DNA of 49,870 nt, from assembly GCA_016926955.1 (NCBI GenBank), contig JAFGNN010000084.1:1-49870 (forward strand). Direction: 5' to 3'. Under the pieces are notes generated by a model. The model saw only the letters and a list, made by a program, of their open reading frames with translations. It had not been told where the DNA came from and made no database searches. This document shows, piece after piece, positions 1-23,000 of the stretch; position 1 is the stretch's first letter; each line of letters opens with the position of its first letter. Position numbers and translations under genes: made by a program. This DNA is from Spirochaetales bacterium (GTDB lineage: Bacteria > Spirochaetota > Spirochaetia > Treponematales > UBA12059).

Positions 1-3000
1 GGGCGGGTATGGTCATACGGCTACGACGAGGCCGGGCGCCTCTCGGCCGTGCGCGACCCGGCCGGCGCCTGGACGCGTTACGGCTACGAGGGCGACTTGA
101 TGGTCAGCCTGGTCCGCGATGACGGTTCGACGCGTCGCTTCCGTTACGGAACCCTCGGTGACAGGCGGGTTGTCGTGGAGACGGAAGACGAGGAGGGCGC
201 GGTGGAGCGCTTCCGCTACGATCCTCTCGGCGCCTGGGCCGAATACGAGAATCCTTCCGGAATCATCGAGCGCCACCGCTTCGACGGGGACTTGCGCACG
301 GTACGCATCGAGTACGCCGACGCATCCTTCGCAAGCTTCGAATACGACGGGTCGGGGCGCGTTTCCAGGGAGCGGAAAGCGGACGGCGGCGAGTGGCGCT
401 ACGCCCATGATGAGGACGGCAACTTGGTCTCGGTGAAGGGGCCGGAAGCCTGGAGCGAAGCGTACGATTACGACGCATTCGGGCTTGTGACGATGGCGGT
501 CGACGCGTCCGGTTTCCGCACCGTGATCGAACGCGACGCCGCGGGGCGGGTGCTCTCCGTTCGACGACCGGGCGGAGCCATCGAACGGTATGAGTATGAC
601 GGGGAAGGTTCGCTCTCGGCGTTCGTCGACCCGGACGGCGCCCGCACAGGGTACTCGCATGACCCTCGGGGATACATTTCGGAGGTGATCCAGCCAGACG
701 GTTCGACGGAACGGTTCGAACGCGACGCCGCCGGGCGCGTCCTCGCGCGCGTCGACGGCGAAGGTTTCGAATGGCGCTACGAACTCGACCCGGACGATCG
801 GGTCGTAAAGGTCGCCGACCCCTCGGGCGGCGTCGCGACACGCTCATACTCGACACGGAAAGACTTGGTCGCCGAGACCGATCGGACCGGCGCGACCACG
901 CGCTACTTCTACGACAGGCGTCATCTTCTCCTCCTCTCGGTAGACGGCGCCGGCGTGGCGCGCGGCTTCGAGTACCGCGCGGATTGCAGGCCCGTCGTCG
1001 AGCGGATCGGAATGGCCGTTCTCCCGGAAGGCGCGGACGGAGGCTCGGCCGGCGACTGGACGATAGACTGGGAACGCGAGACGGAGCTCGCCTACGACGG
1101 AATGGGCCGGCTTTCGCTTGAACGCATCGCGGGAACCGACCTCATCACGGCATATGAATACGACGCGCTTGGACGCATCGTCGCGAAAACGGACGGCGCA
1201 GGTATCCGCACCTCGTATTCGCGCGACGGACTCGGGCGGCCGCTTTCCGAAAGCGTCGACGGGGTCATCACCTGGCGGCTTGCGTGGGACTCGGCCAACC
1301 GGCCGCTCTCGGCCTTCGACGCGCTCGGCAACGAGACGCGCTTTTCCTACGGCGCGGACGGCCGTCTGTCCGTGCGTGCGCGCTACGACAGCGGGCGCCT
1401 CGCATCGGAGGACCGATACGAATGGGATTCGGGCGGGCGGTTGGTCGCGCGCGTCGACCCGCTCGGGCGTCGGTACTACCGGCGCTACGACGCGCTCGGC
1501 CGCTTGTCAGCGGAAGGCGGCCCGAGCGCGGAGTACGGCGAACGTACGTTCTCCTGGGACCGGCGGAGCTTGCCCGTCGAGCTTGTCGAACGCTCGGGGA
1601 GGACCACGCGCTTCGAGTACGACGCGAACGGCGAGCTCGTCGCGGCCGTCGATCCCGCCGGCTCGCGGGAGCTGTTCCGCCGCGACGCGGAAGGGCGGGT
1701 GATCGAGCGAGTCGACCGCTCGGGCGGCGTCAGCCGCTTCGAGCGCGACGGCGCCGGGCGTGTGGTCGCCGAAACCGATGCGACCGGCGCGACGGCGCGC
1801 TTCGAGCTCGACGCTTCGGGCCTGGTTGTCGCGGAGCTGGACGCGCTCGGGGGCCGTCGGGAATACCGTCGCGATCCGGCGGGACGCGTTACGATGGAGC
1901 TCGATCCGAGCGGGCGGAAGACGGAGCGGGCCTGGGACGCCGCCGGAAACCTGCTGGAAATCCGCGAGGGCGCCGCGCTCGTCGAGTCGTTCTCCTGGGA
2001 CGCGTTTGGCCGGCTGACCGGCCGCTTCGACGGCGCCGTCATCTACGAATACGTACGGGACGCCGCGGGGAACCTGCTCGCCGAGGGCATCGAAGGCGGA
2101 CCCTTGCGCCGCTACTCCTACGACGCCATGGGGAAGCTGCTCTCGGAGACGGACCGGCTCGGCAAGACCGCCTCATGCGAATACGACGCGGCTGGGCGCC
2201 TCGTCGGGCGCCGTGATTTCGACGGCAGGGAGACGCGCTTCGAGTACGACGGGCTGGACCGGCCCGTCGCCGAGCGCAGGCCCGACGGCGACGTCGCACG
2301 CTACGCATGGGATCCGGACGGCCTCCTCGTCTCGGCCTCCGACCGCGACTCCGAGCTCGAGTTCGATTATGACTGGGCGGGGAATCTCGCGTCGTGCGTG
2401 GACCACGCGCACGGGTCGGAGACGCGCTACGGCTACGACGTCGCGGGGCGGAGGACCTCGCTTGAACTGGGCGACCGCTCGCTGGCCTGGAACCTGGACG
2501 CGGCCGGACGGGTCACATCGATGCGCGACGCGTCGGGCGGCACGACGACGCTTCGCCGCGACGCCCTCGGTCGCGTGACTTCGGTGTCCTACCCGAACGG
2601 GGCGTGCGTCGAAACGGCCTTTGACGGGGCGGGTCGTCCCCTGACGGTCGAGATCTCGACGCGACAACCCGGACAGGACGCGAAGCTTCCGTCCTGCGCC
2701 TGCGAGTATGACGACGCAGGGCGCCTCGTCCGCGCGCATGATGCGCTCTTCGGACTCAGTGAATACGGCTATGACGCCGCGGGACGGCTCGCCTCGGTCG
2801 TCTCGGACTGGAGCGCGGAGCTCGTCGACGCGGCGCTCGCGGAACTGGGTCGCTTCGGCCTCGCGGCCGACCCCGGGGACCCGGAAGGGCAGGGCATCCG
2901 CTCCGGAGGGCGGGGCGCCGCTGAGGCCACGCGAAAATTCGAGGTGCGCTACGCGTACGACGAGGCCGGCAGGCGCGTGGAGAAGTCGACGCCTCTCGGC

Positions 3001-4287
3001 GTCATCGCGTACGCCTACGACGCCGAGGGGCGCGTCCTCGCTGCCGGGCGGCGCTCCTACGCGCACGACGCGAACGGCCGCCTCCTGACCGAGACCCTCG
3101 ACGGGATCGAGCGTTCCTACCGATACGATCCGTCGGGCCGACTCGTCGCCGCACGGGGTTCCGCCCCGAAACCGAAAGGAAAGGGAGGGAGGGCGGCAAG
3201 CGAGTTTTCGGTAACCTACGGCTACGACGCACTCGGCCGGCGCATTTCACGCGCGGAGGAAGGCGGCCACGGTTCGGGCGGCGCTACGGCGGAATGGTAC
3301 CTGCGCGACGGTCTCGGCCTGGATCTGCTGGCTTCCCGGTCGGATCGACCGGGCGGCGGGGCGTCCGTCGGCGATCCCGATGCGCTGTTTGCCCGCGTCG
3401 AAGGAGCCGCGCTCGCGGCGGCGTGGAGCCCCGGTGCTTCGTGGCAGGGCGAAAGGCATGCCGGCACCGGAGCGGAATACTACGTGAACGACGCGGCACG
3501 CACGACGAGGGCCGCCCTGGACCGGAACGGCACCGTAATCGAAACGCCCCGTTTCGACGTGTTCGGAATCTCGCTAAAGCCTGAGGCAGGCAGGTTCTCT
3601 CCCCTCGGTTTCGCGGGCACCGCCCTCGACCCCGACACGGGCTTCCGGGATTTTGGCTTCCGCGACTACGCGCCTGAGCTCGGCCGTTTCACGAGCGGAG
3701 ACCCCGCCCGCGACGGCGACGACTGGTTCGCGCTGTGCGGGAACGATCCCGTCAACTTCACGGACCGCTCAGGTCTGAGCGCCGAGGAGCTCTACCTCCA
3801 GCAAGCCCACATGGCCGGCGGCGAATGGGTGGCGGATTACCCGGTCGCGTGCAAGCTCTTCTCCGCTTACAACGCGCTCGTCGCCGAGGGCTACCGCCCC
3901 CTCGACCTGCCCGGTGACCGCGCGAAGCGCATGAACGACGCGCTGATGGCCGGCACAAAGAACATCGCCGAAATAGTCGCGGCGGAATTCGGTCTCGAGA
4001 TCGTCCGCGAGGCAATACCCACTGGCCTTTCGCTCGCGGAGTTCGAAGCCTTCGTGGCGGGCAGGCCCGCGGTGGTGCATTTCAGTGCGAAGTATTATTG
4101 GGGTTCGAAGAAACTTAGCGCAAAGCTAGAACATGGAATTTCCTATTCAGATGGGAGATTCCGCGATTCGTATACAGGTCGTGGTGAGGAGGGATTTGAG
4201 AGCACTCGTGGGGGGAAGTCAGCGATCGATTTTTCTAAAAATCTCGGTGGTTGGGTTTACTATATCAAGAAGAAGGAGGATGCATGA
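1..4287 (+). CDS. Rhs/YD-repeat protein with papain-like C-terminal tip (5' end outside window)
   Basis: The reading frame is open from base 1 and already in YD-repeat sequence, so the N-terminus lies upstream. Dozens of YD/RHS units of the form YDxxGRL fill most of the 1428 visible residues. The core ends with the usual Rhs closing motif around 3600-3780 (GFAGTALDPDTGFRDF, then ELGRF, GNDPVNFTD). In the family this core forms a shell that encloses a variable C-terminal domain. Here the last ~165 residues form that tip. A Cys codon at 3850 (VACKLF), a His codon at 4132 (LEHGIS) and an Asp codon at 4165 (FRDSY) fit the Cys-His-Asp order of papain/C39-like peptidases; this assignment is inference. 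The final ~200 bases are visibly more AT-rich than the core, as expected for an exchanged tip. The stop overlaps the next start (ATGA). Rhs identity is very secure; the enzymatic role of the tip is not. Confidence 0.9.
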   Translation, partial: GRVWSYGYDEAGRLSAVRDPAGAWTRYGYEGDLMVSLVRDDGSTRRFRYGTLGDRRVVVETEDEEGAVERFRYDPLGAWAEYENPSGIIERHRFDGDLRTVRIEYADASFASFEYDGSGRVSRERKADGGEWRYAHDEDGNLVSVKGPEAWSEAYDYDAFGLVTMAVDASGFRTVIERDAAGRVLSVRRPGGAIERYEYDGEGSLSAFVDPDGARTGYSHDPRGYISEVIQPDGSTERFERDAAGRVLARVDGEGFEWRYELDPDDRVVKVADPSGGVATRSYSTRKDLVAETDRTGATTRYFYDRRHLLLLSVDGAGVARGFEYRADCRPVVERIGMAVLPEGADGGSAGDWTIDWERETELAYDGMGRLSLERIAGTDLITAYEYDALGRIVAKTDGAGIRTSYSRDGLGRPLSESVDGVITWRLAWDSANRPLSAFDALGNETRFSYGADGRLSVRARYDSGRLASEDRYEWDSGGRLVARVDPLGRRYYRRYDALGRLSAEGGPSAEYGERTFSWDRRSLPVELVERSGRTTRFEYDANGELVAAVDPAGSRELFRRDAEGRVIERVDRSGGVSRFERDGAGRVVAETDATGATARFELDASGLVVAELDALGGRREYRRDPAGRVTMELDPSGRKTERAWDAAGNLLEIREGAALVESFSWDAFGRLTGRFDGAVIYEYVRDAAGNLLAEGIEGGPLRRYSYDAMGKLLSETDRLGKTASCEYDAAGRLVGRRDFDGRETRFEYDGLDRPVAERRPDGDVARYAWDPDGLLVSASDRDSELEFDYDWAGNLASCVDHAHGSETRYGYDVAGRRTSLELGDRSLAWNLDAAGRVTSMRDASGGTTTLRRDALGRVTSVSYPNGACVETAFDGAGRPLTVEISTRQPGQDAKLPSCACEYDDAGRLVRAHDALFGLSEYGYDAAGRLASVVSDWSAELVDAALAELGRFGLAADPGDPEGQGIRSGGRGAAEATRKFEVRYAYDEAGRRVEKSTPLGVIAYAYDAEGRVLAAGRRSYAHDANGRLLTETLDGIERSYRYDPSGRLVAARGSAPKPKGKGGRAASEFSVTYGYDALGRRISRAEEGGHGSGGATAEWYLRDGLGLDLLASRSDRPGGGASVGDPDALFARVEGAALAAAWSPGASWQGERHAGTGAEYYVNDAARTTRAALDRNGTVIETPRFDVFGISLKPEAGRFSPLGFAGTALDPDTGFRDFGFRDYAPELGRFTSGDPARDGDDWFALCGNDPVNFTDRSGLSAEELYLQQAHMAGGEWVADYPVACKLFSAYNALVAEGYRPLDLPGDRAKRMNDALMAGTKNIAEIVAAEFGLEIVREAIPTGLSLAEFEAFVAGRPAVVHFSAKYYWGSKKLSAKLEHGISYSDGRFRDSYTGRGEEGFESTRGGKSAIDFSKNLGGWVYYIKKKEDA

Positions 4288-4874
4288 TGGACCGAAACAT
4301 GACGCTAACGTGCGGATACTCCAGGAAGCGGCATTTTATCGCTTTGGTTATTGCTCTACTAACTATGAGTATGGTAGCTAGCACGCAAGGGGCTCCTGCG
4401 AAAGGTCTCTGGGTACTTTCCGGCGGAAAGATGATGACTGCTGGTGTAGAAATCGCTTTCGGTTCGACGAGCGCACAGGCCGAGTCACTCTTCGGTAAGC
4501 CTGCCTTCATCGAACCTTGGCCATTCTCCTTCTCTTGGCAGTATGCAGGTTTCCTTTCGCTTGACTTTGACGACGGAACTAAGCGGCTGTCGGGAGTTAG
4601 GCTCTACCTCGAAAAAAGCATCGCGGGCAAGGGTGTCGCAACGAAAATCCCGATTGACCTCTTAAAGGTGGAGGTTTTAGGTGTTGTGGTCGAAGACACG
4701 TCAGTTTGGGACGACATCATTGAGCAGGCAAGCGAATGCGGCATCAACATAATTGACAGCACACCCGGCGAAGAATTGGGTCTGAGCGATGGGACGTACG
4801 AAGCCTGGTTCTACTGCGAAAAAGACCAAGGCGGCGATCTGCATTCGATCGAGTACTTCAAGCTGCCCGACTGA
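4287..4874 (+). CDS. Small exported protein, candidate immunity partner of the Rhs tip
   Basis: This 195-residue protein is not recognised as a known family. ATG 4287 overlaps the Rhs stop and lies 7 bases after GGAGG at 4275-4279; ATG 4284 is the alternative. Residues 1 to about 35 are a basic segment (CGYSRKRHF) followed by a hydrophobic stretch (IALVIALLTMSMVAS), a likely Sec signal peptide, so the mature protein should act outside the cytoplasm. The mature part contains GVEIAFGSTSAQAESLFGKP and an acidic C-terminus with three Cys overall. Its position directly behind a polymorphic Rhs tip, translational coupling to it, and matching low GC suggest an immunity or accessory function. That rests on context only. 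An exported immunity protein would imply that the toxin acts in the periplasm. Confidence 0.75.
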   Translation: MDRNMTLTCGYSRKRHFIALVIALLTMSMVASTQGAPAKGLWVLSGGKMMTAGVEIAFGSTSAQAESLFGKPAFIEPWPFSFSWQYAGFLSLDFDDGTKRLSGVRLYLEKSIAGKGVATKIPIDLLKVEVLGVVVEDTSVWDDIIEQASECGINIIDSTPGEELGLSDGTYEAWFYCEKDQGGDLHSIEYFKLPD

Positions 4875-4894
4875 TCAGCAGGCTTCTGGTAGAT

Positions 4895-4934
4895 GGCGCG
4901 AGGAAGGCCTGAACGGGCCGGCCCCGCGCCTTTT
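4895..4934 (+). terminator. Rho-independent terminator after the Rhs/immunity pair
   Basis: GGCGCG (4895-4900) can pair with CGCGCC (4925-4930). An inner GGCC/GGCC pair extends the hairpin, and TTTT follows at 4931-4934. It begins 21 bases after the stop of the small exported protein and separates this unit from the prepilin peptidase region. Confidence 0.6.
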
Positions 4935-5102
4935 GCATTTTCCGCGGGCTTAGGCCGCGCCGCGCATCCGTTTGATTTTCCGGTCGGGAAGCGCAAGCGC
5001 GGGTGCGGGGCGGCGCGGTATCGCTACGCCTCCGGAGCCGCCGCGGTTCGGATCTTGCGCGGCATGACGCGGACTCCGGCCGGCAGATCCAGGAGCACGG
5101 CC

Positions 5103-5399
5103 ATGGAAAAAGCGCTTCCCGCCGCCTTCGTACTCCTCGCCCTGTACTGCGCCCGGACCGACCTCCGGAGCCTGCGCATTCCGGATCGCGCCTTGCTGGC
5201 CTTCGCCGTTCCCGCGCTCGCGATCGACCTCTTCGAGGGCGGCGCGTCGTACGCGCGCATCGCCGCGGCGCTCGCTGCGGGTCTGGCCTTGTGGAGCGCC
5301 GGAAGGCTTTCGAAGGCCGGCATTGGCTTCGGGGACCTCAAGCTGGGGGCGGCTGCGCACTCAGTCCCGGACCACAAGCATGGGCTTGCCGCGGCCTAA
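5103..5399 (+). pseudogene. Truncated type IV prepilin peptidase (A24 family) remnant
   Basis: This 98-residue frame starts at ATG 5103 with AGGAG at 5091-5095. Residues 1-85 align without gaps to the intact prepilin peptidase at 6433. Shared features are the first catalytic aspartate region (CARTDLRSLRIPD here, VIDSRTFRIPD there) and the GxGD motif with its context (AGIGFGDLKLGAAA here, AGIGLGDVKLGAAG there). After GAAA the homology ends abruptly, and 13 unrelated residues lead to a stop. The terminal membrane helices are therefore missing although both catalytic Asp are present. The DNA has diverged well beyond a recent copy, so it is an old paralogue that lost its 3' half. Its stop overlaps the stop of the convergent gene at 5396. 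It is probably inactive, but a minimal active product cannot be excluded from sequence. Confidence 0.7.
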
Positions 5400-6325
5400 A
5401 AATCCACGCGATATCGCGCGATGATCACGCTTTCCTTGTCGAAATAATTCGCGTATATGAGGGCGGATCCTTCCGAAACGGGAACGGTTACCACCCAGAA
5501 GTTGCCCAGTTCCGGAATCTTCTCGATGTTCGCCATACGCGGATCGCCGTGCGAAGGATAAATGGCAATCTCGATGGAGGAAGGAGTTCGAAATACCCAC
5601 CAAGTCGATCCGTCGGGGCCTGCCGCCGATAGCGAAGCTTCGTCCCGACCGATCGGCCAGGCTGAAGGAGCGATGCTTCGGGCTTCGCCCAGGGTGAACG
5701 GAAGCATGCGAGTGCCCAGAACGGCTGCGGGAAACTTTCCCGCAGCCGCGTCGACGCTCTGGAGCGATGCGGTGTAGGGGGGCGTGTCCCGGATCGCGAT
5801 CGATGAGCCATCCATCTCCACCGCACCCGAGAGGCGGACGGAGACAGTGTCCCCGAAAGCGAAGACGGCGGATGGAAAGGTGAGCAAGGGGAACGGGGCG
5901 GTCCAGACGAGGGATCCATGTTGGTCGAGGCGGTACAGGTTCGAGTCGGTGAAGGCGATGTATCCGCCATCCGACGAGGAGCCGAAGTAGTTGAGGCGCG
6001 GCGTGGCGATTTCGCAAGGCAGCGGGGCAAGGGGCTCGAGATCGGCGCCGAACCGGATGAGCCGCGAGCGGAAGTGGTCCGGAATGGTAATAATTCCCCG
6101 GGCGTCGGCCGTGAAAAACAAGGGTCGCCAATCATCGGACCCTTCGCCCAAGGACGCGAGTTCGAAGCGACCATCGCCCAACCCGACCTCGAGAGGCTCG
6201 AGGCGGGTGATGACGGGAGTCGAACCTGCCGTCTGGGCTCGCAGGGGGCCTTGAGCCGCGATCATCGCGACGAGAAGGGAGAGGAGACGCCAGTGATTTC
6301 CGAATCCGTTGCGCTGCTTCGACAT
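5396..6325 (-). CDS. Exported protein of unknown function, propeller-like
   Basis: The product has 309 residues. ATG 6325 is followed by a basic N-terminus and a hydrophobic core (LLSLLVAMIAAQGPLRAQ), a probable Sec signal peptide with cleavage near residue 31. The mature part is rich in short beta-type segments ending in SDG or DQHG turns (FGSSSDGGYIAFTDSNLYRL, then DQHGSLVWTAPF). These resemble PQQ-like or WD-type propeller blades. No catalytic motif was recognised. It sits between the truncated and intact prepilin peptidase genes in the opposite orientation, and its stop overlaps the stop of the truncated one by four bases. No Shine-Dalgarno is seen before the ATG, and a possible promoter lies so close that the transcript may be leaderless. 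The gene looks genuine; the function is unknown. Confidence 0.75.
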   Translation of the reverse strand: MSKQRNGFGNHWRLLSLLVAMIAAQGPLRAQTAGSTPVITRLEPLEVGLGDGRFELASLGEGSDDWRPLFFTADARGIITIPDHFRSRLIRFGADLEPLAPLPCEIATPRLNYFGSSSDGGYIAFTDSNLYRLDQHGSLVWTAPFPLLTFPSAVFAFGDTVSVRLSGAVEMDGSSIAIRDTPPYTASLQSVDAAAGKFPAAVLGTRMLPFTLGEARSIAPSAWPIGRDEASLSAAGPDGSTWWVFRTPSSIEIAIYPSHGDPRMANIEKIPELGNFWVVTVPVSEGSALIYANYFDKESVIIARYRVDF

Positions 6326-6331
6326 AGGGCG

Positions 6332-6360
6332 ATATTAGTTCGGACTGTTGCATGGGTCCA
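6332..6360 (-). promoter_or_regulatory. Possible sigma-70-type promoter giving a leaderless transcript
   Basis: Read on the minus strand, TGGACC (6355-6360) and TAATAT (6332-6337) are separated by exactly 17 bases. Each matches the consensus at four of six positions. Only six bases lie between the -10 element and ATG 6325, so transcription would begin at or next to the start codon. No ribosome-binding sequence is present upstream of the ATG. Confidence 0.35.
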
Positions 6361-6432
6361 GCCCCTGTTCCCCGCACCGGTCCGGCGCATGGCCCGAATG
6401 TGGACCGGCCTGGCCCCGACCTTGCGCCGGCC

Positions 6433-6903
6433 ATGAGGTTCCGGTATCATCCGGCCGTGGATGGCTTGATTCTTCCCGGGTTCCTGCTTGTCGCGATCGT
6501 GAGCGCCGTGATCGATTCGCGGACATTCAGGATCCCGGACGCATTGACCGGCGGGTTCGCCCTGTTCGCCCTGTCGCTGGACCTGCTCGATGGGGGCTTG
6601 GGCGCCGAACGCGCTCTCGCGGCGCTCCTGGCGGGCATGATCCTTATGCTCGCCGGGAGGGTGTCCGGGGCCGGAATCGGCCTCGGTGACGTAAAGCTCG
6701 GTGCTGCTGGAGCTTACGCACTCGGCCTCGTGGGAGGATGGGTCATGCTCGCCGTTGCATCAGGACTCGGCGTGTCGCTCGCGTTGATATCGAGGAGGAG
6801 AAACGGACCGAAGGAAAGCGGCTCTTCGTCAGCAGTTCGCGTGCCATTCGCCCCTTTCCTTGCCGCAGGAGCCATCGTGGCCGTTCCGTTCGCCTGTTTG
6901 TGA
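6433..6903 (+). CDS. Type IV prepilin peptidase (A24 family), short form
   Basis: This inner-membrane aspartic peptidase is expected to cleave the leader of pseudopilins such as GspG. The 156-residue protein is almost entirely hydrophobic and carries the two family aspartates: one in SAVIDSRTFRIPD and one in the GxGD motif (AGIGLGDVKLGAAG). It lacks the N-terminal Zn-binding methyltransferase region of full-length GspO/PilD, so it is a peptidase-only form. ATG 6433 was chosen; GTG 6457 (VDGLIL) aligns better with the start of the truncated paralogue and is a possible alternative. Neither has a strong Shine-Dalgarno. It lies 123 bases upstream of gspD in the same direction, and no other peptidase is present in the operon, which supports a role in the same secretion system. 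Confidence 0.85.
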   Translation: MRFRYHPAVDGLILPGFLLVAIVSAVIDSRTFRIPDALTGGFALFALSLDLLDGGLGAERALAALLAGMILMLAGRVSGAGIGLGDVKLGAAGAYALGLVGGWVMLAVASGLGVSLALISRRRNGPKESGSSSAVRVPFAPFLAAGAIVAVPFACL

Positions 6904-7026
6904 AAAACCGGTCGATGGTGTAGCCAAAGTCAATAGACGAGGCAAAAAATGATCGCGCTTATGGCTCAAGGCAGTGTATCCTGCGCGGTGCCTTCCTAAA
7001 TACCCGGGTTTGGAGCCTGACTGGTC

Positions 7027-9210
7027 ATGGTAAAAAACAAGCTGATCCCTGTCCTCGCAAGTGTCATTCTAGCCACGTCCCACATATCCGTCGGGGCTCA
7101 AGCCATCAAGAGCATGGAATTCAGGGGCCAGGACATCAACGATATCCTCATGGCGCTGGCCCAGGCCGGCGGGGTTTCCATCGTTCCGGACGAAACCGTG
7201 AACGGGACCGCCAGTTATTATTTCGCGGATACAGATTTCACGACCGCCTTCCAGTCGTTCCTCGCCGCGTTCAAGCTCTATGCCAGGAAGGATGGCTCCG
7301 TCTGGTACGTGAGCAGGGTGGGTGCCCTCTGGGATCCTGCCAGGGGGCTGCTGACGCTCGACGCGGAGGACGTCGATGTCCAACTCGTCATCCAGGCGGC
7401 TTCCCGCGCGATGGGACGGACTATCCTCTATGACGCGCTGCCGCGCGAGACCATCACGATCCACGCCTCGGCGCTCCCGCCGGAGCGGGTCGTCGAGATT
7501 CTCGGAAAGCGCTTCTCCGGCTACACGGTCGAGTACGCCGAGGATCATTTCTACATCAAGAGGATGCCGCTGGCCGACGCGCGGGCGGGCGGCACAGCTT
7601 CGAAAGGCGACATTCTCAGCCGCAGCCCCGAAGGCCTCTGGTCCATCGACCGGGACTCGGCCCGGCTCATCGATATCCTGGAGGAGCTATTCAGGCGCGA
7701 GGGGAAGGAATTCTCCCTGCTCATGCGCGCCGACGCGACGCTGGAACGGCTGCGATGGAAATCCAGGCCTTTCGAGGACTTCCTGAGGCTCGTCCTCGAG
7801 CAGGCGAACGCGGATTACGCGGTGAAGGATGACGTCTGGTACTTCTTCGAAATTCAGCGCAAGGATGTCCTCAAGAAACTGAAAGAAACGGAGATCGTCC
7901 GGCTTCGTTTCCTGTCCGTCCAGGACCTCTCCGGATTGCTCCCGGCCGATCTTTCATCGGGCGGGTTCTTCCGGGTGGACAAGGCGAGCAATTCCGTAAT
8001 TCTCTCGGGAAGCGCGGAGGAGACGGGGCCGATCAAGGAATTCATCGCATCCGTCGACCTGCCGGGCGAAGGCTTGACGTACTACCTGTTTCAACCCGCC
8101 TTCATCAAGGCGAAGGAAGCTGTAGCCATGCTGCCCGCGTGGCTCGCCGCCTCGGGACCCGTGCTGGTCCCTGACGGAACCGCATTCCTCTTGCGGCTCT
8201 CGCCCGAGCAGAAACGAGCCGCCGACGCTTTCATCGCGAGCGTAGACGCTCCGCGCGAGGCGACTCCGGTGCGTTTGCGCTACATCAGGACCGAGGACCT
8301 CCTCAAGACCCTTCCGCCATCGGTCGCGAAGGAAGATCTCGTGGATTCCGGCGACCCGAGCACCGTTTTCTTCGTCGGGAGGCCGGAGCGGCTCGATCTG
8401 TTCCGGCGCGAGCTCGAGGTGCTTGACCGTCCGAAACCCCAGATCCGCTACGATATCCTGGTCGTCCAGTACCAAAGGAACGATTCGCTTACCTGGCAGA
8501 AGAGCCTGGATGCCAGGCCCTCCGATGAAGGCGATTCGTACGCCATAGTCGGTGCCCTTTCAAAGCTGGTGTCGTTGAACTTCGATGTTGTGGCTGAGTT
8601 CGGCTACCTGTTCGCCGCGAAGCTTTCCCTGGAACTCGGCAACGCCGAGGGGAGGATTTTCGCGGACACGACCCTCACGGGACTGTCGGGGCACGAGGTC
8701 AAATTCCAGAACACCAGCACGTTCCGCTACCGGGACACCGAGATCGATCCGGACACCGGCACGCCGAAGAGCACCGGCGTAACGCGCGAGCTGACAAGCG
8801 GCCTCATCATCGGCGTGAACGGCTGGGTCTCCGGCGACGGCATGGTCACGATGGACATCCAGGCGACGATCTCGAAGCGCGGCGCCGACACGTCCACTTC
8901 CGGGGCGAATCCTCCTCCGACTTCTGAGCGCGTGGTCTCCTCCCACCTCCGGACGGCCTCGGGCGATCCGATCATACTCTCGGGCTTGATCCAGCGGGAG
9001 CGCACTGAGACGGTCAAGAAAATCCCGATCCTCGGAGACATTCCCTGGATCGGCTCGATATTCCGGGATGTCGTCGAGTCGGAGGAAGAGACGGAACTCG
9101 TCATCTATATTATCCCCCGCATAATGACTCCGTCATCGACTGAGCCTGGGGGCGCGGGGCTGAGGATGGAGCGGCTGTGGCGCGAGCTTTTCACGGAACA
9201 GATCCCGTGA
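7027..9210 (+). CDS. gspD: T2SS outer-membrane secretin GspD
   Basis: GspD forms the outer-membrane channel of the type II secretion system. The product has 727 residues with a signal peptide (IPVLASVILATSHISVGAQ). An N0-like domain follows (about 27-98, starting IKSMEFRGQDINDILMALAQ). Then come several ring-forming N-type modules: about 108-180, 217-285, 290-350, 353-412 and 415-475. The secretin domain lies at about 500-715, with the typical end GDPIILSGLIQ, KIPILGDIPWIGSIF and ETELVIYIIPRIM. There are more periplasmic modules than in classical GspD (N0-N3). No S-domain is apparent after the barrel, so a pilotin might bind elsewhere or be dispensable. ATG 7027 has a weak GGAG at 7012-7015. 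The stop overlaps the gspE start (GTGA). Confidence 0.92.
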   Translation: MVKNKLIPVLASVILATSHISVGAQAIKSMEFRGQDINDILMALAQAGGVSIVPDETVNGTASYYFADTDFTTAFQSFLAAFKLYARKDGSVWYVSRVGALWDPARGLLTLDAEDVDVQLVIQAASRAMGRTILYDALPRETITIHASALPPERVVEILGKRFSGYTVEYAEDHFYIKRMPLADARAGGTASKGDILSRSPEGLWSIDRDSARLIDILEELFRREGKEFSLLMRADATLERLRWKSRPFEDFLRLVLEQANADYAVKDDVWYFFEIQRKDVLKKLKETEIVRLRFLSVQDLSGLLPADLSSGGFFRVDKASNSVILSGSAEETGPIKEFIASVDLPGEGLTYYLFQPAFIKAKEAVAMLPAWLAASGPVLVPDGTAFLLRLSPEQKRAADAFIASVDAPREATPVRLRYIRTEDLLKTLPPSVAKEDLVDSGDPSTVFFVGRPERLDLFRRELEVLDRPKPQIRYDILVVQYQRNDSLTWQKSLDARPSDEGDSYAIVGALSKLVSLNFDVVAEFGYLFAAKLSLELGNAEGRIFADTTLTGLSGHEVKFQNTSTFRYRDTEIDPDTGTPKSTGVTRELTSGLIIGVNGWVSGDGMVTMDIQATISKRGADTSTSGANPPPTSERVVSSHLRTASGDPIILSGLIQRERTETVKKIPILGDIPWIGSIFRDVVESEEETELVIYIIPRIMTPSSTEPGGAGLRMERLWRELFTEQIP

Positions 9211-10700
9211 GCCGGAGCGCCGCCGGAGGCGCGGCCGTTCCTGCGCCGCTTTCATCGTTCGAACCGCTACCGGATGGCGATTCGCAGTTCGCTCCGGCGT
9301 TTTCCGAGGCGAACCGGGTCGTGAAGCTGTCGGAATCGGAGACCCGCATCCTCGTGGGGGCCGATGCCCCGCTCCGGCCGGACCTGGCCGGATCGATTGC
9401 CGTACTCTCCGGAAAAATCGTCGAAACGGTGCTGCTCGATCCGGCGGAACTGGCATCGTATCTGGCGGGACGCGCCGTCGACGCGCCGACCGGAGCCCTA
9501 TCGGCGGGCGGCGACGAACGCATCCTGCTCGACCGGCTCGCCAACGACGCGCCGGTCGTCAACCTCGTGAACTCGATCCTCATCGACGCCATCCGCGCGG
9601 ACGCGAGCGACGTCCACGTCGAAGCCGGGGCTGAGGAATCGACGGTCAGGTACCGGATCGACGGATCATTGACTGTCGCGCGCCGCTTCTCACGCGAACG
9701 CTTCGCCGGTGTGTCCGCGAGGATCAAGGTGATGGCCAACCTGAACGTCATGGAGCGGCGCCTGCCGCAGGACGGGCGCGTGACCGTGGATCTTGGCAAC
9801 GATACGATCGATCTCCGCGTGTCGATCGTTCCCGTGAGAAAGGGCGAGTCGATCGTGCTTCGCATTCTCGGCCGATCGAAAACGCCGCTGTCGCTCGAAA
9901 GCCTCGGGATGGACGCGAGCATGCTGGCCACGACCGAGCGGCTGCTCCGCTCGCCGCACGGGCTCGTGCTCGTGACCGGACCGACCGGATCGGGGAAGAC
10001 CACGACCTTGACCGCGATGTTGCGGGCCCTCCGGGACGAGACACGGAAGGTGATCTCGATAGAAGATCCGATCGAGTACGTGGTCGACGGAGTCAACCAG
10101 ATCCAGACGAACGAGAAGATCCAGCTCACGTTCGAATCGATTCTTCGGCGGGTTCTCCGGCAGGATCCGGATGTGGTCATGGTCGGGGAAGTCCGCGACC
10201 ATCCGACCGCCGACCTCGTCGTCCGCGCCGCGATGACCGGTCATCTCGTCCTGACTACGCTCCATACGAACGACGCGGTCGCCGCCATCGCCCGCATGAA
10301 GAATATCGGGGTGGAACCATACCTGACCGCCAGCGTGCTGCGCGCTTCCATCGCGCAACGATTGCTGCGCCGCGTCTGCCCCGCGTGCGCCGGATCCCGG
10401 CCTCTGGGGCCGGCCGAACGCGCGATCGCCAGCGGCCATGGACTTGAGCTCGATCGTACCCCCGTGGCCATCGGCTGCCCCGCTTGCCGCGGAACCGGCT
10501 ATTCGGGGCGTTTCGCGGTGTTCGAGTCGTTCAGCATGGATACGGAGCTCGAGGAGCTCGTCGCCTCGGGCGGACGCGGGGCGACCTTGGCGACTTTCCT
10601 GGAAGAGCGAGGGATGCCGAGGCTCGCGCGCGCGGCGCTCTCTCGCGTGGCCGAGGGCGAGACCACCTTCGAGGAATTCGAGCGCGAGGTAGGCGCCTGA
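9207..10700 (+). CDS. gspE: T2SS ATPase GspE
   Basis: GspE is the cytoplasmic hexameric ATPase that powers pseudopilus assembly. The 497-residue product contains Walker A GPTGSGKTT at 258-266, an Asp-box region (SIEDPIEYVVDGVNQIQ), a Walker B-like segment VVMVGEVRD at 323-331, and a His-box (TGHLVLTTLHTNDA). A tetracysteine zinc site follows (C391xxC394 and C424xxC427), typical of GspE/PilB. GTG 9207 is preferred over GTG 9177 because it overlaps the gspD stop by four bases, the coupling style used through this operon. The stop TGA overlaps the gspF ATG by one base. The start is the only uncertain point. Confidence 0.95.
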   Translation: MSRSAAGGAAVPAPLSSFEPLPDGDSQFAPAFSEANRVVKLSESETRILVGADAPLRPDLAGSIAVLSGKIVETVLLDPAELASYLAGRAVDAPTGALSAGGDERILLDRLANDAPVVNLVNSILIDAIRADASDVHVEAGAEESTVRYRIDGSLTVARRFSRERFAGVSARIKVMANLNVMERRLPQDGRVTVDLGNDTIDLRVSIVPVRKGESIVLRILGRSKTPLSLESLGMDASMLATTERLLRSPHGLVLVTGPTGSGKTTTLTAMLRALRDETRKVISIEDPIEYVVDGVNQIQTNEKIQLTFESILRRVLRQDPDVVMVGEVRDHPTADLVVRAAMTGHLVLTTLHTNDAVAAIARMKNIGVEPYLTASVLRASIAQRLLRRVCPACAGSRPLGPAERAIASGHGLELDRTPVAIGCPACRGTGYSGRFAVFESFSMDTELEELVASGGRGATLATFLEERGMPRLARAALSRVAEGETTFEEFEREVGA

Positions 10701-11893
10701 TGGCCCGGTTCCGAGTCCGCTTGGTGGACGCCGATGGCCGAAGGCGACGCGATACGGTGGAAGCATCGGACGCGGAAAGCGCCATCCGCGTGGTCGAAGG
10801 GAAGGGACTTATCGCGATCGGCGTGGAGCCGGACGAGCGCTCCCCGCATCGGATCTCGCGTGTTGGCGGAAAACCCCTCGCCGATTTCACCTCGCTGTCA
10901 GCCTCCCTGCTCTCGGCAGGGCTCACTCTCCGCGACGCGCTGTCGGTGGTAGCGGAAACCGCGGAGCGACAGGACGTCAGGAAGCTGGCGTCCGATCTCG
11001 GGACGCGCATCGACGCCGGGTCGAGCCTCCATGACGCGTTCGACGAGCTCGGCTATGCCGTCCCGCCGGTCTACCGGGGACTAGTGCGGATCGGCGAGAG
11101 GGTCGGCGCCCTGGACGCGGTTTTCCCCAGGCTCGCCGCGCAACTGGAATCCACGAGGGCTGCGCGCGAGAAGCTCGTGGCCGCCTTGATTTATCCTTCG
11201 ATAGTCCTGCTATTGGCGATTTTCGGGCTTTTCGGACTATCCATCTGGATACTGCCCCGGCTCGCCGCCGTATTCGGCGAAATCGGCGGAGAGGGCCCGT
11301 CCTTGAGCGATCGAGTCGGAGCGGCGAGGGCCGTCACGACTGGGCTTGTCCTGCTTCTGTCCGCGCTTTCCGTCGCATTGGCGGCAGCTCTCGTCTGGCG
11401 CGGGCGACATGAAGGTTTCGCGCGAACCTTCGACGCGGCTTTGCTTCGGATTCCGCTGCTCGGAAAATCGCTCGCGGAGCGCGCGAGCCTGTCTTTCGCC
11501 TTCGCCATGGAATCGCTCGTCGCCGGGGGGTTGCCGATCGACGAGGCACTGCTGGAAAGCGCCTCGGCCGTCGGGAACAGAGCCGTGGCCGCCGACATAC
11601 TCGCGATCCGCGAATCGGTGCTGAAAGGGAAGCCGCTCTCGCAGTCCGTCGAAGCCGCCCGCCGCTTGCCGCGCTATCTGGGGCAGTGGTTCGCGGTCGG
11701 CGAACGCACCGGGAAAGTCGAAGCCGTGTTCGGGCAGCTCCGGGCATACTATCAACGTTCGACCGAACGGGCGCTCGAGCGTGCGATGGCCCTCGTCGAA
11801 CCGGGGATCATACTTCTGGTGGGAATGCTCCTTCTGGGTATCGTCGTGTTCTTCATAGTGCCTCTTTTCTCGGCTTACGGCTCATTGCTCTGA
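10700..11893 (+). CDS. gspF: T2SS inner-membrane platform protein GspF
   Basis: GspF is the polytopic platform protein that contacts the ATPase and the pseudopilins. The 397-residue protein has the family layout of two homologous cytoplasmic halves (FTSLSASLLSAGLTLRDAL and the second copy AFAMESLVAGGLPIDEALL) with three membrane segments at about 160-187, 212-234 and 368-390. The short N-terminal segment MARFRVRLVDADGRRRRDTV is also family-typical. ATG 10700 shares its first base with the gspE stop. A 48-base gap separates it from gspG, the only intergenic space in the operon. Confidence 0.93.
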   Translation: MARFRVRLVDADGRRRRDTVEASDAESAIRVVEGKGLIAIGVEPDERSPHRISRVGGKPLADFTSLSASLLSAGLTLRDALSVVAETAERQDVRKLASDLGTRIDAGSSLHDAFDELGYAVPPVYRGLVRIGERVGALDAVFPRLAAQLESTRAAREKLVAALIYPSIVLLLAIFGLFGLSIWILPRLAAVFGEIGGEGPSLSDRVGAARAVTTGLVLLLSALSVALAAALVWRGRHEGFARTFDAALLRIPLLGKSLAERASLSFAFAMESLVAGGLPIDEALLESASAVGNRAVAADILAIRESVLKGKPLSQSVEAARRLPRYLGQWFAVGERTGKVEAVFGQLRAYYQRSTERALERAMALVEPGIILLVGMLLLGIVVFFIVPLFSAYGSLL

Positions 11894-16779: not shown

Positions 16780-18339
16780 ATGCTGAAAACCAAAGCCCCC
16801 GTGACTTGGCTTGCGGTCGCGATAGTGGCGATCCTCGCCTTCACTGCCTGCGTTCCGCCCGTAGGTTCGGATGATCCGGATCTCGAAACCGTGGCAACCC
16901 CGACGATCACTCCCTCGGGCGGCACGTTCTCCTCGACCCAGGATGTGACGCTCGCCTGCGCCACGGAAGGCGCGACCATCCGTTACACGCTCGACGGAAA
17001 CGATCCTTCGACGGTCTCCACGGTTTACACCGAAGCGTTCCAGGTATCGGTCAGCTCGACGGTCAAGGCCCGGGCCTTCAAGAGCGGGATGTCGGAATCG
17101 GCGGTTTCGTCCGCCACGATCACGATCGAGACCCCGGCGGGACAGGTCGCGACTCCCTCGATCTCCCCGGCGACAGGAACGTATGGATCCGCCCGGACGG
17201 TGAGCATCACCTGCGCCACGGAAGGCGCCGAGATCCGGTACACCACGGATGGCGAAGATCCCACCGTCACTTCGACCCTCTACGCGGCGGCGTTCGAGGT
17301 CTCAGCTACCACGACCGTGAAAGCGCGCGCTTTCAAATCGGGCCTGGATGCTTCCTCGATCGTGACGAGCATCGTCACGATCGACTACCCCGATGTCGGG
17401 GCGGTCACCATCACGCTCGACGCAGCCACCCGCTTCGATTCGTGGGACGGTGAGTGGATCACCTGGTTCGAACTCGAGTGTCCGAGTGCCGGAGCGCAAA
17501 TCCGCTACACCGTGGACGGTTCGGAGCCGACTCAGGAGAGTGCCCTCTACGATCCGGAAGCGAACAATGTAGTTTGGCTCAGCGCCACCCTCAAGGCGCG
17601 CGCGTTCGTTTCCGGCATGGATCCGTCGGCGATCGCCGTAGAGGCGCTGCCCGACCTGGTCGAAAGCGTAAGCGGTACCGTCACCCTGGCCGACATGGTC
17701 GACTCGAGGACCTTGCGCGTCGTGCTGTCCGATTCGACCGACCCGACGTCCATGGGCCTGGCGGAGTACGAGCAGGACCTCATGAGCGAAGAGACGGTCG
17801 CTTTCGAGCTCCGCTTCTTCAGGCGCGCCGGAAACGCGTACCTCCACGCCTGGTGCGACATCGATGAAGACTATTCGCTCACGAGCGGAGATTTCCTCGG
17901 CTATTTCGGCGGATCCGGAACCGCCGCCCCGGCCTCGCCCAATGTATCGACCGTGGCGGGCTCGACCGGCAATGATTTCGTTACCGCTCTTTACGGCTCG
18001 GGCACCGTGAGCGGAAACATCACCATCCCTTCCGGATTTGACCTGACCGATCACATGATCGGTGTCGTTGTCGACACCGATACCATTTCCGAAAACGGAA
18101 ATGCAGGGAGCGCTGAAATTCCTTGCGTCGCGGGGCAATTCGAGTACACCTACCAGGTCGAGTGCGCCGCCGGCACCTATTATGCGTATGTATTCGTAAT
18201 CAGCTCAGTTCCGGAGCTTACGCACATGGGTTACTACGGAAGCGCCACCGCCGATCCGGCTTCCGCGGTCACCTTCACGGTGTCGGAAGGCTCGATCACT
18301 TCGGAAATAGACATTGGATGCGTACCCGCCGCTCCCTGA
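16780..18339 (+). CDS. Lipoprotein with three chitobiase C-terminal-like repeats
   Basis: The 519-residue lipoprotein has lipobox ILAFTAC (Cys24). Three consecutive units of about 80 residues follow. Each has CATEGAxIRYTxDGxDP or a close variant, then TVKARAFKSGM or TLKARAFVSGM. This is the signature of the chitobiase/beta-hexosaminidase C-terminal domain, which occurs as a non-catalytic accessory module in many secreted proteins. The region after about residue 300 contains VSGTVTLAD and VSGNITIPSGFDLTDHMIGV, resembling carboxypeptidase-regulatory folds, without a known catalytic motif. It has its own likely promoter and terminator, so it is probably a single-gene unit. It should sit on the cell surface or in the periplasm; its ligand is unknown. 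Confidence 0.85.
   Translation: MLKTKAPVTWLAVAIVAILAFTACVPPVGSDDPDLETVATPTITPSGGTFSSTQDVTLACATEGATIRYTLDGNDPSTVSTVYTEAFQVSVSSTVKARAFKSGMSESAVSSATITIETPAGQVATPSISPATGTYGSARTVSITCATEGAEIRYTTDGEDPTVTSTLYAAAFEVSATTTVKARAFKSGLDASSIVTSIVTIDYPDVGAVTITLDAATRFDSWDGEWITWFELECPSAGAQIRYTVDGSEPTQESALYDPEANNVVWLSATLKARAFVSGMDPSAIAVEALPDLVESVSGTVTLADMVDSRTLRVVLSDSTDPTSMGLAEYEQDLMSEETVAFELRFFRRAGNAYLHAWCDIDEDYSLTSGDFLGYFGGSGTAAPASPNVSTVAGSTGNDFVTALYGSGTVSGNITIPSGFDLTDHMIGVVVDTDTISENGNAGSAEIPCVAGQFEYTYQVECAAGTYYAYVFVISSVPELTHMGYYGSATADPASAVTFTVSEGSITSEIDIGCVPAAP
16891..17650 (+). repeat. Three tandem chitobiase-like coding repeats
   Basis: The units run about 16891-17145, 17146-17391 and 17400-17650. The first two are the closest pair and share CCTGCGCCACGGAAGGCG exactly at the same place in each unit. 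The third is more diverged, with a longer insertion before the RYTVDGSEPT motif. Confidence 0.75.
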
Positions 18340-20069: not shown

Positions 20070-23000
20070 ATGAACAAAAAAGCCCGTGTCACGTTCGCGG
20101 CCGTAGCGCTTCTTGCCCTCTCAGCGGCAGCCCAGCAGTACAAGATCATCGGCGGTACCGACTACGCGGACAATGGCGAGTCGTGCAAGTACGGCGTCTA
20201 CGTGGAATCGGTCCACGGACTCGTTCCGTACACCAACGGCTACTATTTCCGCGATTCCTTCAAGGTGACCGCGTACAAGAACGAAGGCACGCCGAACGAC
20301 TGGCGGCCGGGTTGGGCGGTCACCGTGAAGATAGGCGGCACGAGCTATACGGTCGGATCGATCGCCGCCGACAACCTGGCTTGGGCAAAAACCGTGATCC
20401 CCGCATCGGGGGCAGCCTACGACGTGACAAGCGTCCGCGGTTACCTGACGCGTTACGATCCCGGGTTCCTCTACATCTTCGGTCCCCATACGCACACCAT
20501 CGCCGACAAGACGGTCAGCCTTACCCGTGACGGGACCGCTCCCGTCGTTTCCTTTACCGGGACCTCCTATAATTCGTCCGTTCCTCCCTCATCCCTCGCC
20601 TTCCGGATTTCCGATGATCGGGCCGGAATCGACAGGTCGAGGATCAAGGTCAAATTCAGGGGTTCGTACCTTCCGCCCGGCCTTTCCTCGCTCGACGGGG
20701 TCAAGCTGGATGCCGCGGGAGCCCTGACGAGGACGACCTCGGGACTGCTCGTCGTCGACCTTTCCGGCCAGGACTGGCAGAGCGGCGGAAACGAGGTGGC
20801 CGTCGAGGTGACGGACTTGCTGGGAAACGCGGCCTCCTCGGTATCGACCTTCACCATCGATCCCGCGGCCATCGCCGTCGACTTTGTCCGGACGCCTTCC
20901 GGTTGGGCGAACGTTCCCGTAACCATCGTTCCGTCACGGCCCGCAGGGTCCGTTCCGGCGATACGCGGATACTCATGGCATTCCGTCGACGCCGACGGCG
21001 TCCGCCGTCCGGCCAGCGGAAGCTACGACACGGGAACGCCCGTCAGCGTAGCCGGCAACGGAACCCAGGTGTTCTTCGAGATCGACTTCCGGCTTGTCGA
21101 GGACAATCCGGACACCCTGTATTCCCTTTTCTACTCCATCATGGTCGATACGATCGACACCTTGGCGCCCTCGATCGCGGACCACGTGCCGACGGTGGAC
21201 CACGGAGCCGGCGTGGTGTCACTCAGCGAATTGGCCATTTCGGACGCTCCCTCGACGACGAGCTCGGGTTCGTCCGGCATCGACCGCTCCGGCGTGGAAT
21301 GGTGGTGGGACGAAGGCCCCAGGACCGTCGTGCCGGCCGACTCGTTCGACACCTATGGCCGGCTTTCGATCGATATTCCCGTTCCCGCCTCGGGTTCGGG
21401 CTATCTGCGTCTTTCGGTCAAAGACTACGCGGGCAACTCGACCATCGCATCGTGGCGGGTGGAGCGCGATCTTCTCCCTCCCTGGTACTCGCTCTCGATT
21501 CCTTCCGCGTTGACCCCGTCCGCAGCCGCGGCCGGATTGACCGTTCGCCTCGAAGGAGTCGAGGAGACCGGTACGGGACTCGCCTCGCAACCGGTCAGCC
21601 TGTCCCTTGACGGCGCGGAATACGTATTTGTGCCGCTGGATGCCATCGGTGATGATTTCATAGAGTTTACGCTGTCGGGCGAGGCCGTCGCGGAAGGCCT
21701 CCATCAAGCCTTTTTCAGGCTTTACGACGTCGCCGGCAATTTCGGGCAACGATCGGCCTGGTGGATCATCGACAGCGTCGAACCTGTACTCGGTCCGATC
21801 GCCGTCTTCGCCGGAGCAGATCCGATCCCGGAGGATACGTACCTTCCTGCCGGGGCGGGACCTTTGGTCGCGCGGGTAGAGGCAAGCGATTCTTACCTCG
21901 AGGACGGGGTGGAAGTCGTCGGTCCGAGTCCATCGATAGCCTGGTCGCTGTGTAACAGGCTGGACGGAGTCGGCGCGATCCCGCTGCCCGATTCCGGCGC
22001 CGAGCTTTCGCTTGACGGGCTCGAGGACGGAACCTGGTATCTGCGCGCGGTAGCCCGCGACGCCGCGGGCACGATGAGCGGCGAGCGGATATTCAAGATG
22101 CTCGTGGACAACGAAGCGCCCGGCCCGGTCTTGGTTTCCAGCTCGACCCATCCGGTCGCCTCGACGGAAGAGGACGCGGCGCCATTCGCTGACGCCAGTT
22201 TCAAGGTCAGTCCGGGGGCGAGCGGTCCTTCTGGGATCATGGCCTTTGAGTGGACCCTGTACGACGTGGTGGGTGGAACGAGGCAGTCGGTTCGCGCCGC
22301 CGGTTCGGAAGCGCCCTCGCTGCTCGGTAGCGCCGGCATCGATTTGCTGGACCTTCCCGACAACCAGGCCGCTTCGTTCTACGAACTCGAGGTGAGCGCC
22401 AGGGGCGGTAACCGGCGGATCGGCCCCCCCGCGACCTACCGATTCCGTATCGATACCGTTCCGCCGACCGGCCTCCGGCTGGCCGCTGTTCCGCAGGCCG
22501 ACGAGAACGCCTGGTATGCCGCGCGCCTCGTCCGTCTTTCATGGAACAAGCCCGCCGACATGACCGGCGTCAAGGAATACCGCTACAAGGCGTTCGCTGA
22601 AGGTTTCGATATGCCCGCCGACGAAGCGGCCGCCCGCGCGCTCGACCTCTCCGGCTGGACCGCGACCGGCGCGCTCGAGGCTTCCGTCGACGTGGCGGCG
22701 GCGATCGCCCCCGCGCGCTCAGGAGCCGTCGACATCGCGGTGTGCGCCATCGACTGGTCGGGGAACCGGAGTTTCGCGCGACGCGGCGTGCGCTTCGACG
22801 GAGAGGCTCCGCTTCTCGCGGCGTTGCCCGATGCTTCCGCCGGCTTCGCGGTTCGGTCCGTGCCCGAAGGAGGCGACGAGAGCCGCTTCCTCGTCTGGGG
22901 CGCGCCGACTGACCCGATCCCCAGTTCGGGATTGTCGCGAGTCGAACTCGATGTCAATAACCGCGACGGAACGGCGTACTCGCGCGCCATGGTGCTTGTC

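What the first reader, a model, noticed from the sequence alone, without database searches (positions are those of the whole stretch)
3780..4874. Rhs protein with a papain-like tip and an exported candidate immunity protein
Seen: after the Rhs closing motif the gene becomes AT-richer and encodes about 165 residues with Cys1268, His1362 and Asp1373 (counted from codon 49) in papain/C39 order. An ATGA-coupled gene with a signal peptide follows. Known: polymorphic Rhs toxins carry variable tips followed by immunity genes. Inference: the tip is a cysteine peptidase or related toxin acting in the periplasm, with an exported inhibitor.
Basis: partly seen in the sequence, partly recalled or inferred. 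Interest (0 to 1): 0.6.

Follow-up and report, generated by a model that had tools for sequence, protein, structure and literature searches.

The report
Rhs papain-like toxin with exported immunity
A spirochaete surface-type Rhs protein ends in a previously unlisted cysteine-protease-like toxin domain and is followed by a secreted protein that probably protects the producer; the pair recurs in other spirochaetes on a quite different carrier, so it looks like a genuine but fairly ordinary bacterial weapon-and-shield set.

Summary
The Rhs core ends at 3777. The remaining 169 codons (3778-4284) encode a domain with no Pfam, NCBIfam or PDB sequence match. Relatives exist in a congeneric spirochaete (86% identical) and in four genomes of another family of the order (31-38%). 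Cys1268, His1362 and a Gln at 1251 are invariant; Asp1373 is Asp or Glu. Profile alignment to Peptidase_C39_2 puts Gln/Cys/His/Asp on the C39 equivalents, and a low-confidence AlphaFold model (pLDDT 60) matches mainly papain/C39-type proteins. The ATGA-coupled gene (4284-4874) has a Sec-type signal peptide. A weakly similar protein family follows the tip in all six genomes; its model resembles BamE/BLIP-like domains. A seventh genome keeps these genes behind the same carrier bearing a different tip. I conclude: a polymorphic toxin with a C39/papain-like tip and an exported candidate immunity protein, most likely acting outside the cytoplasm. Target unknown. A second Rhs in the same genome has an immunity-like gene without a signal peptide, which fits tip-dependent compartments. 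Corrections: AT-richness starts about 300 bp inside the tip, mostly in this genome only; no T6SS sheath gene was found, and T2SS-like genes lie downstream. Nothing was tested experimentally.

The parts
1..3777 (+). Rhs/YD-repeat shell (5' end cut by the contig end); Rhs-associated core at about 3556-3777
   Evidence: PF05593 RHS_repeat E=1.9e-133; TIGR03696 residues 1170-1243 of the codon-49 frame, E=2.1e-15; window = contig C18 from base 1
3778..4284 (+). C-terminal tip, 169 aa, papain/C39-like domain (candidate toxin); stop codon 4285-4287
   Evidence: no Pfam, NCBIfam or PDB sequence match; homologues in spirochaete genomes; model m2ce105555133 matches mainly papain/C39 folds; profile alignment to C39_2
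3799..3801 (+). Gln1251, invariant, candidate oxyanion-hole Gln
   Evidence: invariant in A8; aligned to the C39_2 Gln in the global profile alignment
3850..3852 (+). Cys1268, candidate nucleophile
   Evidence: invariant in all six family members; aligned to the C39_2 Cys
4132..4134 (+). His1362, candidate general base
   Evidence: invariant in all six family members; aligned to the C39_2 His
4165..4167 (+). Asp1373, candidate third catalytic residue (Asp or Glu in relatives)
   Evidence: alignment A8; aligned to the C39_2 Asp
4284..4874 (+). candidate immunity protein, 196 aa, overlapping the tip's stop (ATGA); signal peptide about 4284-4397, mature part about 4398-4871
   Evidence: homologue in the congeneric genome 68%; weak homologues behind tip homologues; model resembles BamE/OsmE/BLIP-like domains
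6352..11893 (+). adjacent T2SS-type genes: prepilin peptidase 6352-6903, secretin 7027-9210, T2SSE ATPase 9177-10700, T2SSF 10484-11893; possible exporter, link unproven
   Evidence: Pfam PF01478, PF00263, PF00437, PF00482; prepilin peptidase-like and secretin-like genes also follow the pair in the congeneric genome

Best explanation
This is a polymorphic toxin with its immunity gene. Shown by computation: an Rhs shell ends in a tip domain with Gln-Cys-His-Asp/Glu in papain/C39 order and a papain-like predicted fold, and the overlapping gene encodes a protein with a Sec-type signal peptide. Inferred: the Rhs protein is exported by Sec (the congeneric homologue has a signal peptide), perhaps released across the outer membrane by the T2SS-type machine encoded next door; the tip enters the envelope of a competing bacterium and its Cys-His-Asp site cleaves a peptide or isopeptide bond there, more probably in a protein than in peptidoglycan; the secreted partner, perhaps a BLIP/BamE-like binding protein, blocks the tip in the producer's own periplasm. 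The pair is modular: in another spirochaete family the same tip rides on an unrelated low-complexity carrier with a double-glycine-like leader.
For: Rhs core ends just before the tip. Tip family in two spirochaete families on two unrelated carriers. Cys, His and Gln invariant, acidic residue D/E. AlphaFold model matches UfSP, PCAT1 C39, HlyB C39-like domain, ComA peptidase, the papain-like toxin 9l5u and CdiA-CT 8ssm with Z 6.4-7.8. Profile-profile alignment to spirochaete C39_2 domains puts all four residues on their C39 equivalents; its local score was reached by 1 of 1000 column shuffles. All six tip genomes carry the small-gene family next to the tip; in the sample of 393 spirochaetes it was otherwise found above noise only in G055, behind the same carrier with a different tip. 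Small proteins begin with signal-peptide-like segments, while the immunity-like HEAT protein behind the second Rhs in the same genome does not, although that Rhs also has a Sec-like N-terminus. Congeneric Rhs N-terminus is Sec-like. Low dN/dS. No VipB in three congeneric genomes.
Against: The tip model has pLDDT 60, no Foldseek match to the PDB reaches E 0.001, and Z is under 8, the range in which chance matches occur. Homology of the small protein to the other family's proteins is weak: hhalign P=0.0058; the two-sequence profile ranked one homologue first among about 10,800 shuffles, but the reverse profile did not recover the window protein. In the Rhs context the tip is known from only two congeneric genomes. 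Signal peptides were judged by hydropathy, not by a dedicated predictor. No toxicity or inhibition data. The T2SS link is adjacency only.
Confidence: 0.6

Rival explanations
1. Papain-fold peptidoglycan hydrolase: the tip is a cell-wall amidase like the NlpC/P60-type Tae effectors, and the exported partner works like Tai proteins.
For: Exported partner implies an envelope target; papain-like amidases such as Tae4 that target peptidoglycan are known (PMC12994826). In G055 the same carrier has another tip with an SxGC motif that could be an L,D-transpeptidase-like domain, a cell-wall target (seen by eye only, no Pfam match).
Against: The Gln-Cys-His-Asp pattern and profile alignment point to C39-type proteases; C39, UfSP and papain proteases, not NlpC/P60 enzymes, lead the structure list.
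Confidence: 0.2
2. Cytosolic protease toxin like Cpe1, which cleaves GyrB and ParE; the partner's signal peptide does not indicate the site of action but reflects neutralisation on the producer's surface or in its periplasm.
For: The papain-like toxin structure 9l5u and CdiA-CT 8ssm are among the structural matches; papain-like tips on Rhs and CdiA carriers that act on cytosolic targets are known (PMC12136450).
Against: No sequence similarity to 9l5u or 8ssm was detected; the candidate immunity proteins in both families are exported.
Confidence: 0.15
3. The domain is a processing (releasing) peptidase or an inactive papain-fold binding domain, and the small gene is an unrelated envelope protein.
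For: Papain-like domains in polymorphic toxins sometimes act as releasing peptidases (PMC3482391); no activity data here.
Against: The domain is at the extreme C-terminus with nothing further to release, Cys/His are invariant, and the small-gene family follows it on two different carriers.
Confidence: 0.05

Closest known systems
Cpe1/Cpi1 papain-like cysteine protease effectors (EvpQ, TsaP, C. rodentium CdiA-CT)
   Same: Papain-like C-terminal toxin with Cys-His-Asp on Rhs or CdiA carriers, followed by a small immunity gene (PMC12136450); similar predicted fold.
   Different: No sequence match. Cpe1 acts on cytosolic GyrB/ParE; here the partner is exported, no T6SS sheath gene was found, and the survey's listed phyla do not include spirochaetes.
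Tox-PL / Tox-PLC39 papain-like tips of polymorphic toxins (Zhang et al. 2012, PMC3482391)
   Same: Papain-like fold with C, H, D at the end of RHS proteins.
   Different: The published table gives Tox-PLC39 in Bacteroidetes, Chloroflexi and Firmicutes with no immunity family assigned; the tip here matches no Pfam or NCBIfam model. Whether it belongs to an unmodelled Tox-PL clade could not be tested.
Tae4-type and other envelope-acting effectors with exported immunity proteins
   Same: Papain-like catalytic domains acting outside the cytoplasm, with exported or membrane immunity proteins.
   Different: Delivered by T6SS, and Tae4 cleaves peptidoglycan; here the residues and profile look C39-like and the target is unknown.
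BamE/OsmE, BLIP and BtiO (PDB 9uu1, T6SS immunity)
   Same: Among the candidate immunity model's best structural matches (Z 7.2 for BamE, 5.6 for BtiO, 4.6 for BLIP).
   Different: Low Z, partial coverage, no sequence match; a shared fold shows no function.

Membership tests
Rhs polymorphic toxin | YD/RHS repeats and C-terminal Rhs-associated core followed by a variable tip | tested here: met
   PF05593 and TIGR03696 matches; second Rhs of the same genome has an unrelated tip
Rhs polymorphic toxin | immunity gene directly downstream | tested here: inconclusive
   an overlapping small gene co-occurs with the tip in two families; protection not tested
Rhs polymorphic toxin | tip exchange on the same carrier at the same locus | tested here: inconclusive
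   seen on the non-Rhs carrier: G055 has the same carrier and slot with another tip; for this Rhs locus the two congeneric copies carry the same tip
Papain-like / clan CA C39-type peptidase | Gln, Cys, His, Asp/Asn in order | tested here: met
   invariant Gln, Cys, His; third residue Asp in the window, Asp or Glu in relatives; aligned to C39_2
Papain-like / clan CA C39-type peptidase | papain-like fold | tested here: inconclusive
   the matches are mainly papain-like folds but pLDDT 60 and Z below 8
Peptidase_C39 / C39_2 as curated Pfam families | match above the curated profile cut-off | tested here: not met
   no C39 match for any of the six tips in Pfam, nor for the window tip in NCBIfam; so C39-like, not filed as a member
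Papain-like / clan CA C39-type peptidase | cysteine-dependent peptidase activity | not testable with these tools
   needs an assay
Cpe1/Cpi1 | sequence homology to Cpe1-type domains | tested here: inconclusive
   no PDB sequence match to 9l5u or 8ssm with one sequence or the profile; structural match only
Cpe1/Cpi1 | immunity protein acting in the cytosol | tested here: not met
   the candidate immunity protein has a signal-peptide-like N-terminus
T6SS Rhs effector | T6SS genes in the genome | tested here: not met
   no VipB (PF05943) in G000, G001 or G002; E. coli control rings

The most novel reading that the evidence does not exclude
An unlisted family of C39-type protease toxins that act in the bacterial envelope on proteins, neutralised by secreted BLIP/BamE-like inhibitors, and carried both by Sec-exported Rhs shells beside a T2SS and by double-glycine-leader carriers in another spirochaete family: a T6SS-independent protease warfare module of spirochaetes.
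Probability: 0.3. Interest if true: 0.6.

Novelty: new variant of a known kind. Interest (0 to 1): 0.42.

Why it matters
If right, it adds a testable protease toxin and secreted inhibitor to a phylum in which I found few described examples, shows one toxin domain moving between an Rhs shell and a bacteriocin-like carrier, and offers a case where the exported immunity protein predicts the compartment in which a papain-like toxin acts. It would also give a concrete candidate cargo for an uncharacterised T2SS-type operon.

Tried and rejected
Plasmid and phage collections gave no match to the tip, and plasmids none to the small protein; viral contigs none. PADLOC gave none for the tip or the small protein. 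The weak matches L008, L011, L022, L035-L037 and L044 (E 0.002-0.009, short segments) were treated as noise. I first read '1 TAG inside' for two relatives as broken genes, but comparing the coordinates with the ORFs shows that the matches end on the gene's own stop codon, so all four are intact. Pfam hits SinI and hDGE_amylase are far below cut-offs and rejected. An internal duplication in the small protein, as in BLIP, gave only P=0.02 and is not claimed. T6SS delivery was considered and rejected for lack of VipB. Foldseek on the small protein's model gave no significant match; the BFVD search on the tip gave weak matches, the best to a phage lysozyme. No paper was found on BtiO; searches for spirochaete Rhs or Treponema polymorphic toxins turned up no study of this pair. 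A wider search of other phyla was limited: one pattern-based scan of the genome collection found only the congeneric MAG, and profile searches covered only spirochaetes, so the taxonomic range is a lower bound.

Full report
What was checked. The window is contig C18 of a 3.38 Mb, 94-contig genome and begins at its first base, so the Rhs gene is cut at its 5' end. The frame 1-4287 carries RHS/YD repeats (PF05593, 1.9e-133) and the Rhs-associated core TIGR03696 at residues 1170-1243 counted from codon 49. After the core come 169 residues (3778-4284). The next gene overlaps the stop as ATGA (4284-4287) and runs to 4874.

Sequence families. The tip and the small protein match no Pfam, NCBIfam or PDB sequence above noise. 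Four genomes of another family of the order (f3, genus g12; unnamed, 2.8 Mb, probably the Treponema denticola group, which is my inference) carry a 31-38% identical tip.

A different carrier. In those four genomes the tip sits at the end of a 400-490 residue protein in which no Rhs repeats were found: a short N-terminus resembling a double-glycine leader (clearest in L019, 'LLEMDDLMNVVGGD'), then a low-complexity linker, then the tip. The leader is degenerate in some and is only suggestive; C39-domain matches, most in proteins of transporter size, are present in all five genomes of the genus examined, and T. denticola is reported to have such exporters with candidate double-glycine substrates (PMC4947327). 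Behind the tip lie small exported proteins (families A4, A5) and 312-residue proteins with a NADase_transloc domain (A6).

Co-occurrence and tip exchange. In a sample of 393 spirochaete genomes the tip profile hit six genomes clearly, and the small-protein profile hit the same six plus G055 of genus g12 (other matches E 0.002-0.009 and short). That profile contained members of both groups, so it tests distribution, not homology between the groups. In G055 the same slot between the same neighbours holds the same carrier N-terminus with a different C-terminal tip, and the A4 and A5 genes are still there. This is the pattern expected of polymorphic toxins whose tip was exchanged while older immunity genes stay. 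In genus g12 A6 proteins sit first behind some papain tips and behind the other tip, so which small gene is cognate there is not settled.

Are the small proteins homologous? A4 and A5 are related to each other (hhalign probability 98.9%). The window's family to A4: P=0.0058; the two-sequence profile ranked an A4 protein first against about 10,800 shuffled sequences, with the other three A4 members at ranks 3, 7 and 13, but the reverse test failed. I call the homology probable, not proven.

Is the tip papain-like? Invariant residues include Gln1251, Cys1268 and His1362; the acidic residue is Asp in the window, in G001 and in one of the four distant relatives, and Glu in the other three. The AlphaFold model made from four sequences has pLDDT 60 and pTM 0.59. 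Foldseek gave no significant match, but the second look is filled mainly with papain/C39-type folds: UfSP proteases, the C39 domain of PCAT1, the ComA peptidase, the HlyB C39-like domain, the papain-like toxin/immunity entry 9l5u, CdiA-CT 8ssm, staphopain, cathepsins (Z 5.8-7.8). Z below 8 can arise by chance, so the agreement among rows counts for more than any row. As an independent test I aligned the tip profile with a profile of C39_2 domains collected from relatives. The best local alignment put Cys on Cys, with a score reached by 1 of 1000 column shuffles, and the global alignment put Gln, Cys, His and Asp on their C39 equivalents. Together I give about 85% to a papain/C39-type domain.

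Compartment. The window's small protein, its congeneric homologue, and A4, A5 and A6 proteins begin with basic residues and a hydrophobic stretch typical of Sec signals (hydropathy only). A useful control lies in the same genome: a second Rhs (G000:C4, L046) also has a Sec-like N-terminus but carries another tip, with the motif HHMPQ, and is followed by a HEAT-repeat protein without a signal peptide. The compartment of the partner thus seems to follow the tip, not the carrier, which supports an envelope site of action for the papain-like tip. That the other tip is a nuclease is only a guess from its motif.

The partner's fold. The model of the mature small protein, built with the 11-row alignment, has pLDDT 71; Foldseek gave nothing significant. 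Its closest structures in the second look include BamE, OsmE, two secreted Gram-positive proteins (4h0a, 4ifa), the Bacteroides T6SS immunity protein BtiO, and, lower, BLIP. These are envelope or secreted proteins, and BLIP is itself an enzyme inhibitor (general knowledge). This is a lead only, as Z is at most 7.2, coverage is partial, and the alignment rests on the probable homology above.

Export route. The congeneric Rhs is about 2002 residues from its most likely start, with a Sec-like signal peptide and a proline-rich stretch. No T6SS sheath protein VipB was found in three congeneric genomes. Downstream of the pair lie prepilin peptidase, secretin, T2SSE and T2SSF genes. Export by this T2SS is attractive but rests on adjacency.

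Composition. GC is 0.69 in the core, 0.66 in the first 303 nt of the tip, 0.45 in the last 204 nt and 0.52 in the small gene, whereas the G001 homologue is 0.65 (tip) and 0.66 (small gene); identity to G001 also falls from about 4100. This looks like replacement of the 3' part of the tip and the small gene by an AT-richer allele of the same pair, not like recent acquisition of the whole tip.

Verdict. The finding is real and largely well read. It is a new, so far unmodelled variant of a known kind: a polymorphic toxin with a papain/C39-like tip and an exported candidate immunity protein. Toxicity, target and inhibition are untested.

Noticed in passing
G000:C4 (L046:1199-8710): A second Rhs gene in the same genome with a Sec-like N-terminus, an unrelated tip containing HHMPQ and a HEAT-repeat protein without signal peptide behind it.
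   Followed up: partly
L045:6847-8562 (G055): Same carrier and slot as the other family's papain-like tips but a different C-terminal tip with an SxGC motif (INPWSAGCISS), possibly L,D-transpeptidase-like; no Pfam match.
   Followed up: partly
window 4081-4874: Abrupt AT-rich stretch starting inside the tip and covering the small gene, mostly absent from the congeneric homologue: a probable allelic replacement.
   Followed up: partly
window 4893-6903: What looks like a truncated prepilin-peptidase-like copy (about 5100-5399) followed by a minus-strand 309-aa ORF (5396-6325) and then an intact prepilin peptidase (6352-6903); the congeneric genome has a single copy directly before the secretin.
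   Followed up: no
window 20070-34427: A 4785-codon gene with Ig-like (Big_13, TIG) and PQQ-type matches, preceded upstream by a gene with triple chitobiase C-terminal/Fn3-associated repeats (16780-18339); possible giant surface proteins beside the T2SS genes.
   Followed up: no
L047:1-1293 (G002:C192): A fragment of the second Rhs type lies divergently upstream of what looks like the same secretion operon in a third congeneric genome; could be a real rearrangement or an assembly chimera.
   Followed up: no
L017-L020, L045 (family A6): Exported proteins of about 312 aa with a NADase_transloc (PF25302) domain repeatedly placed among the immunity-like genes.
   Followed up: no
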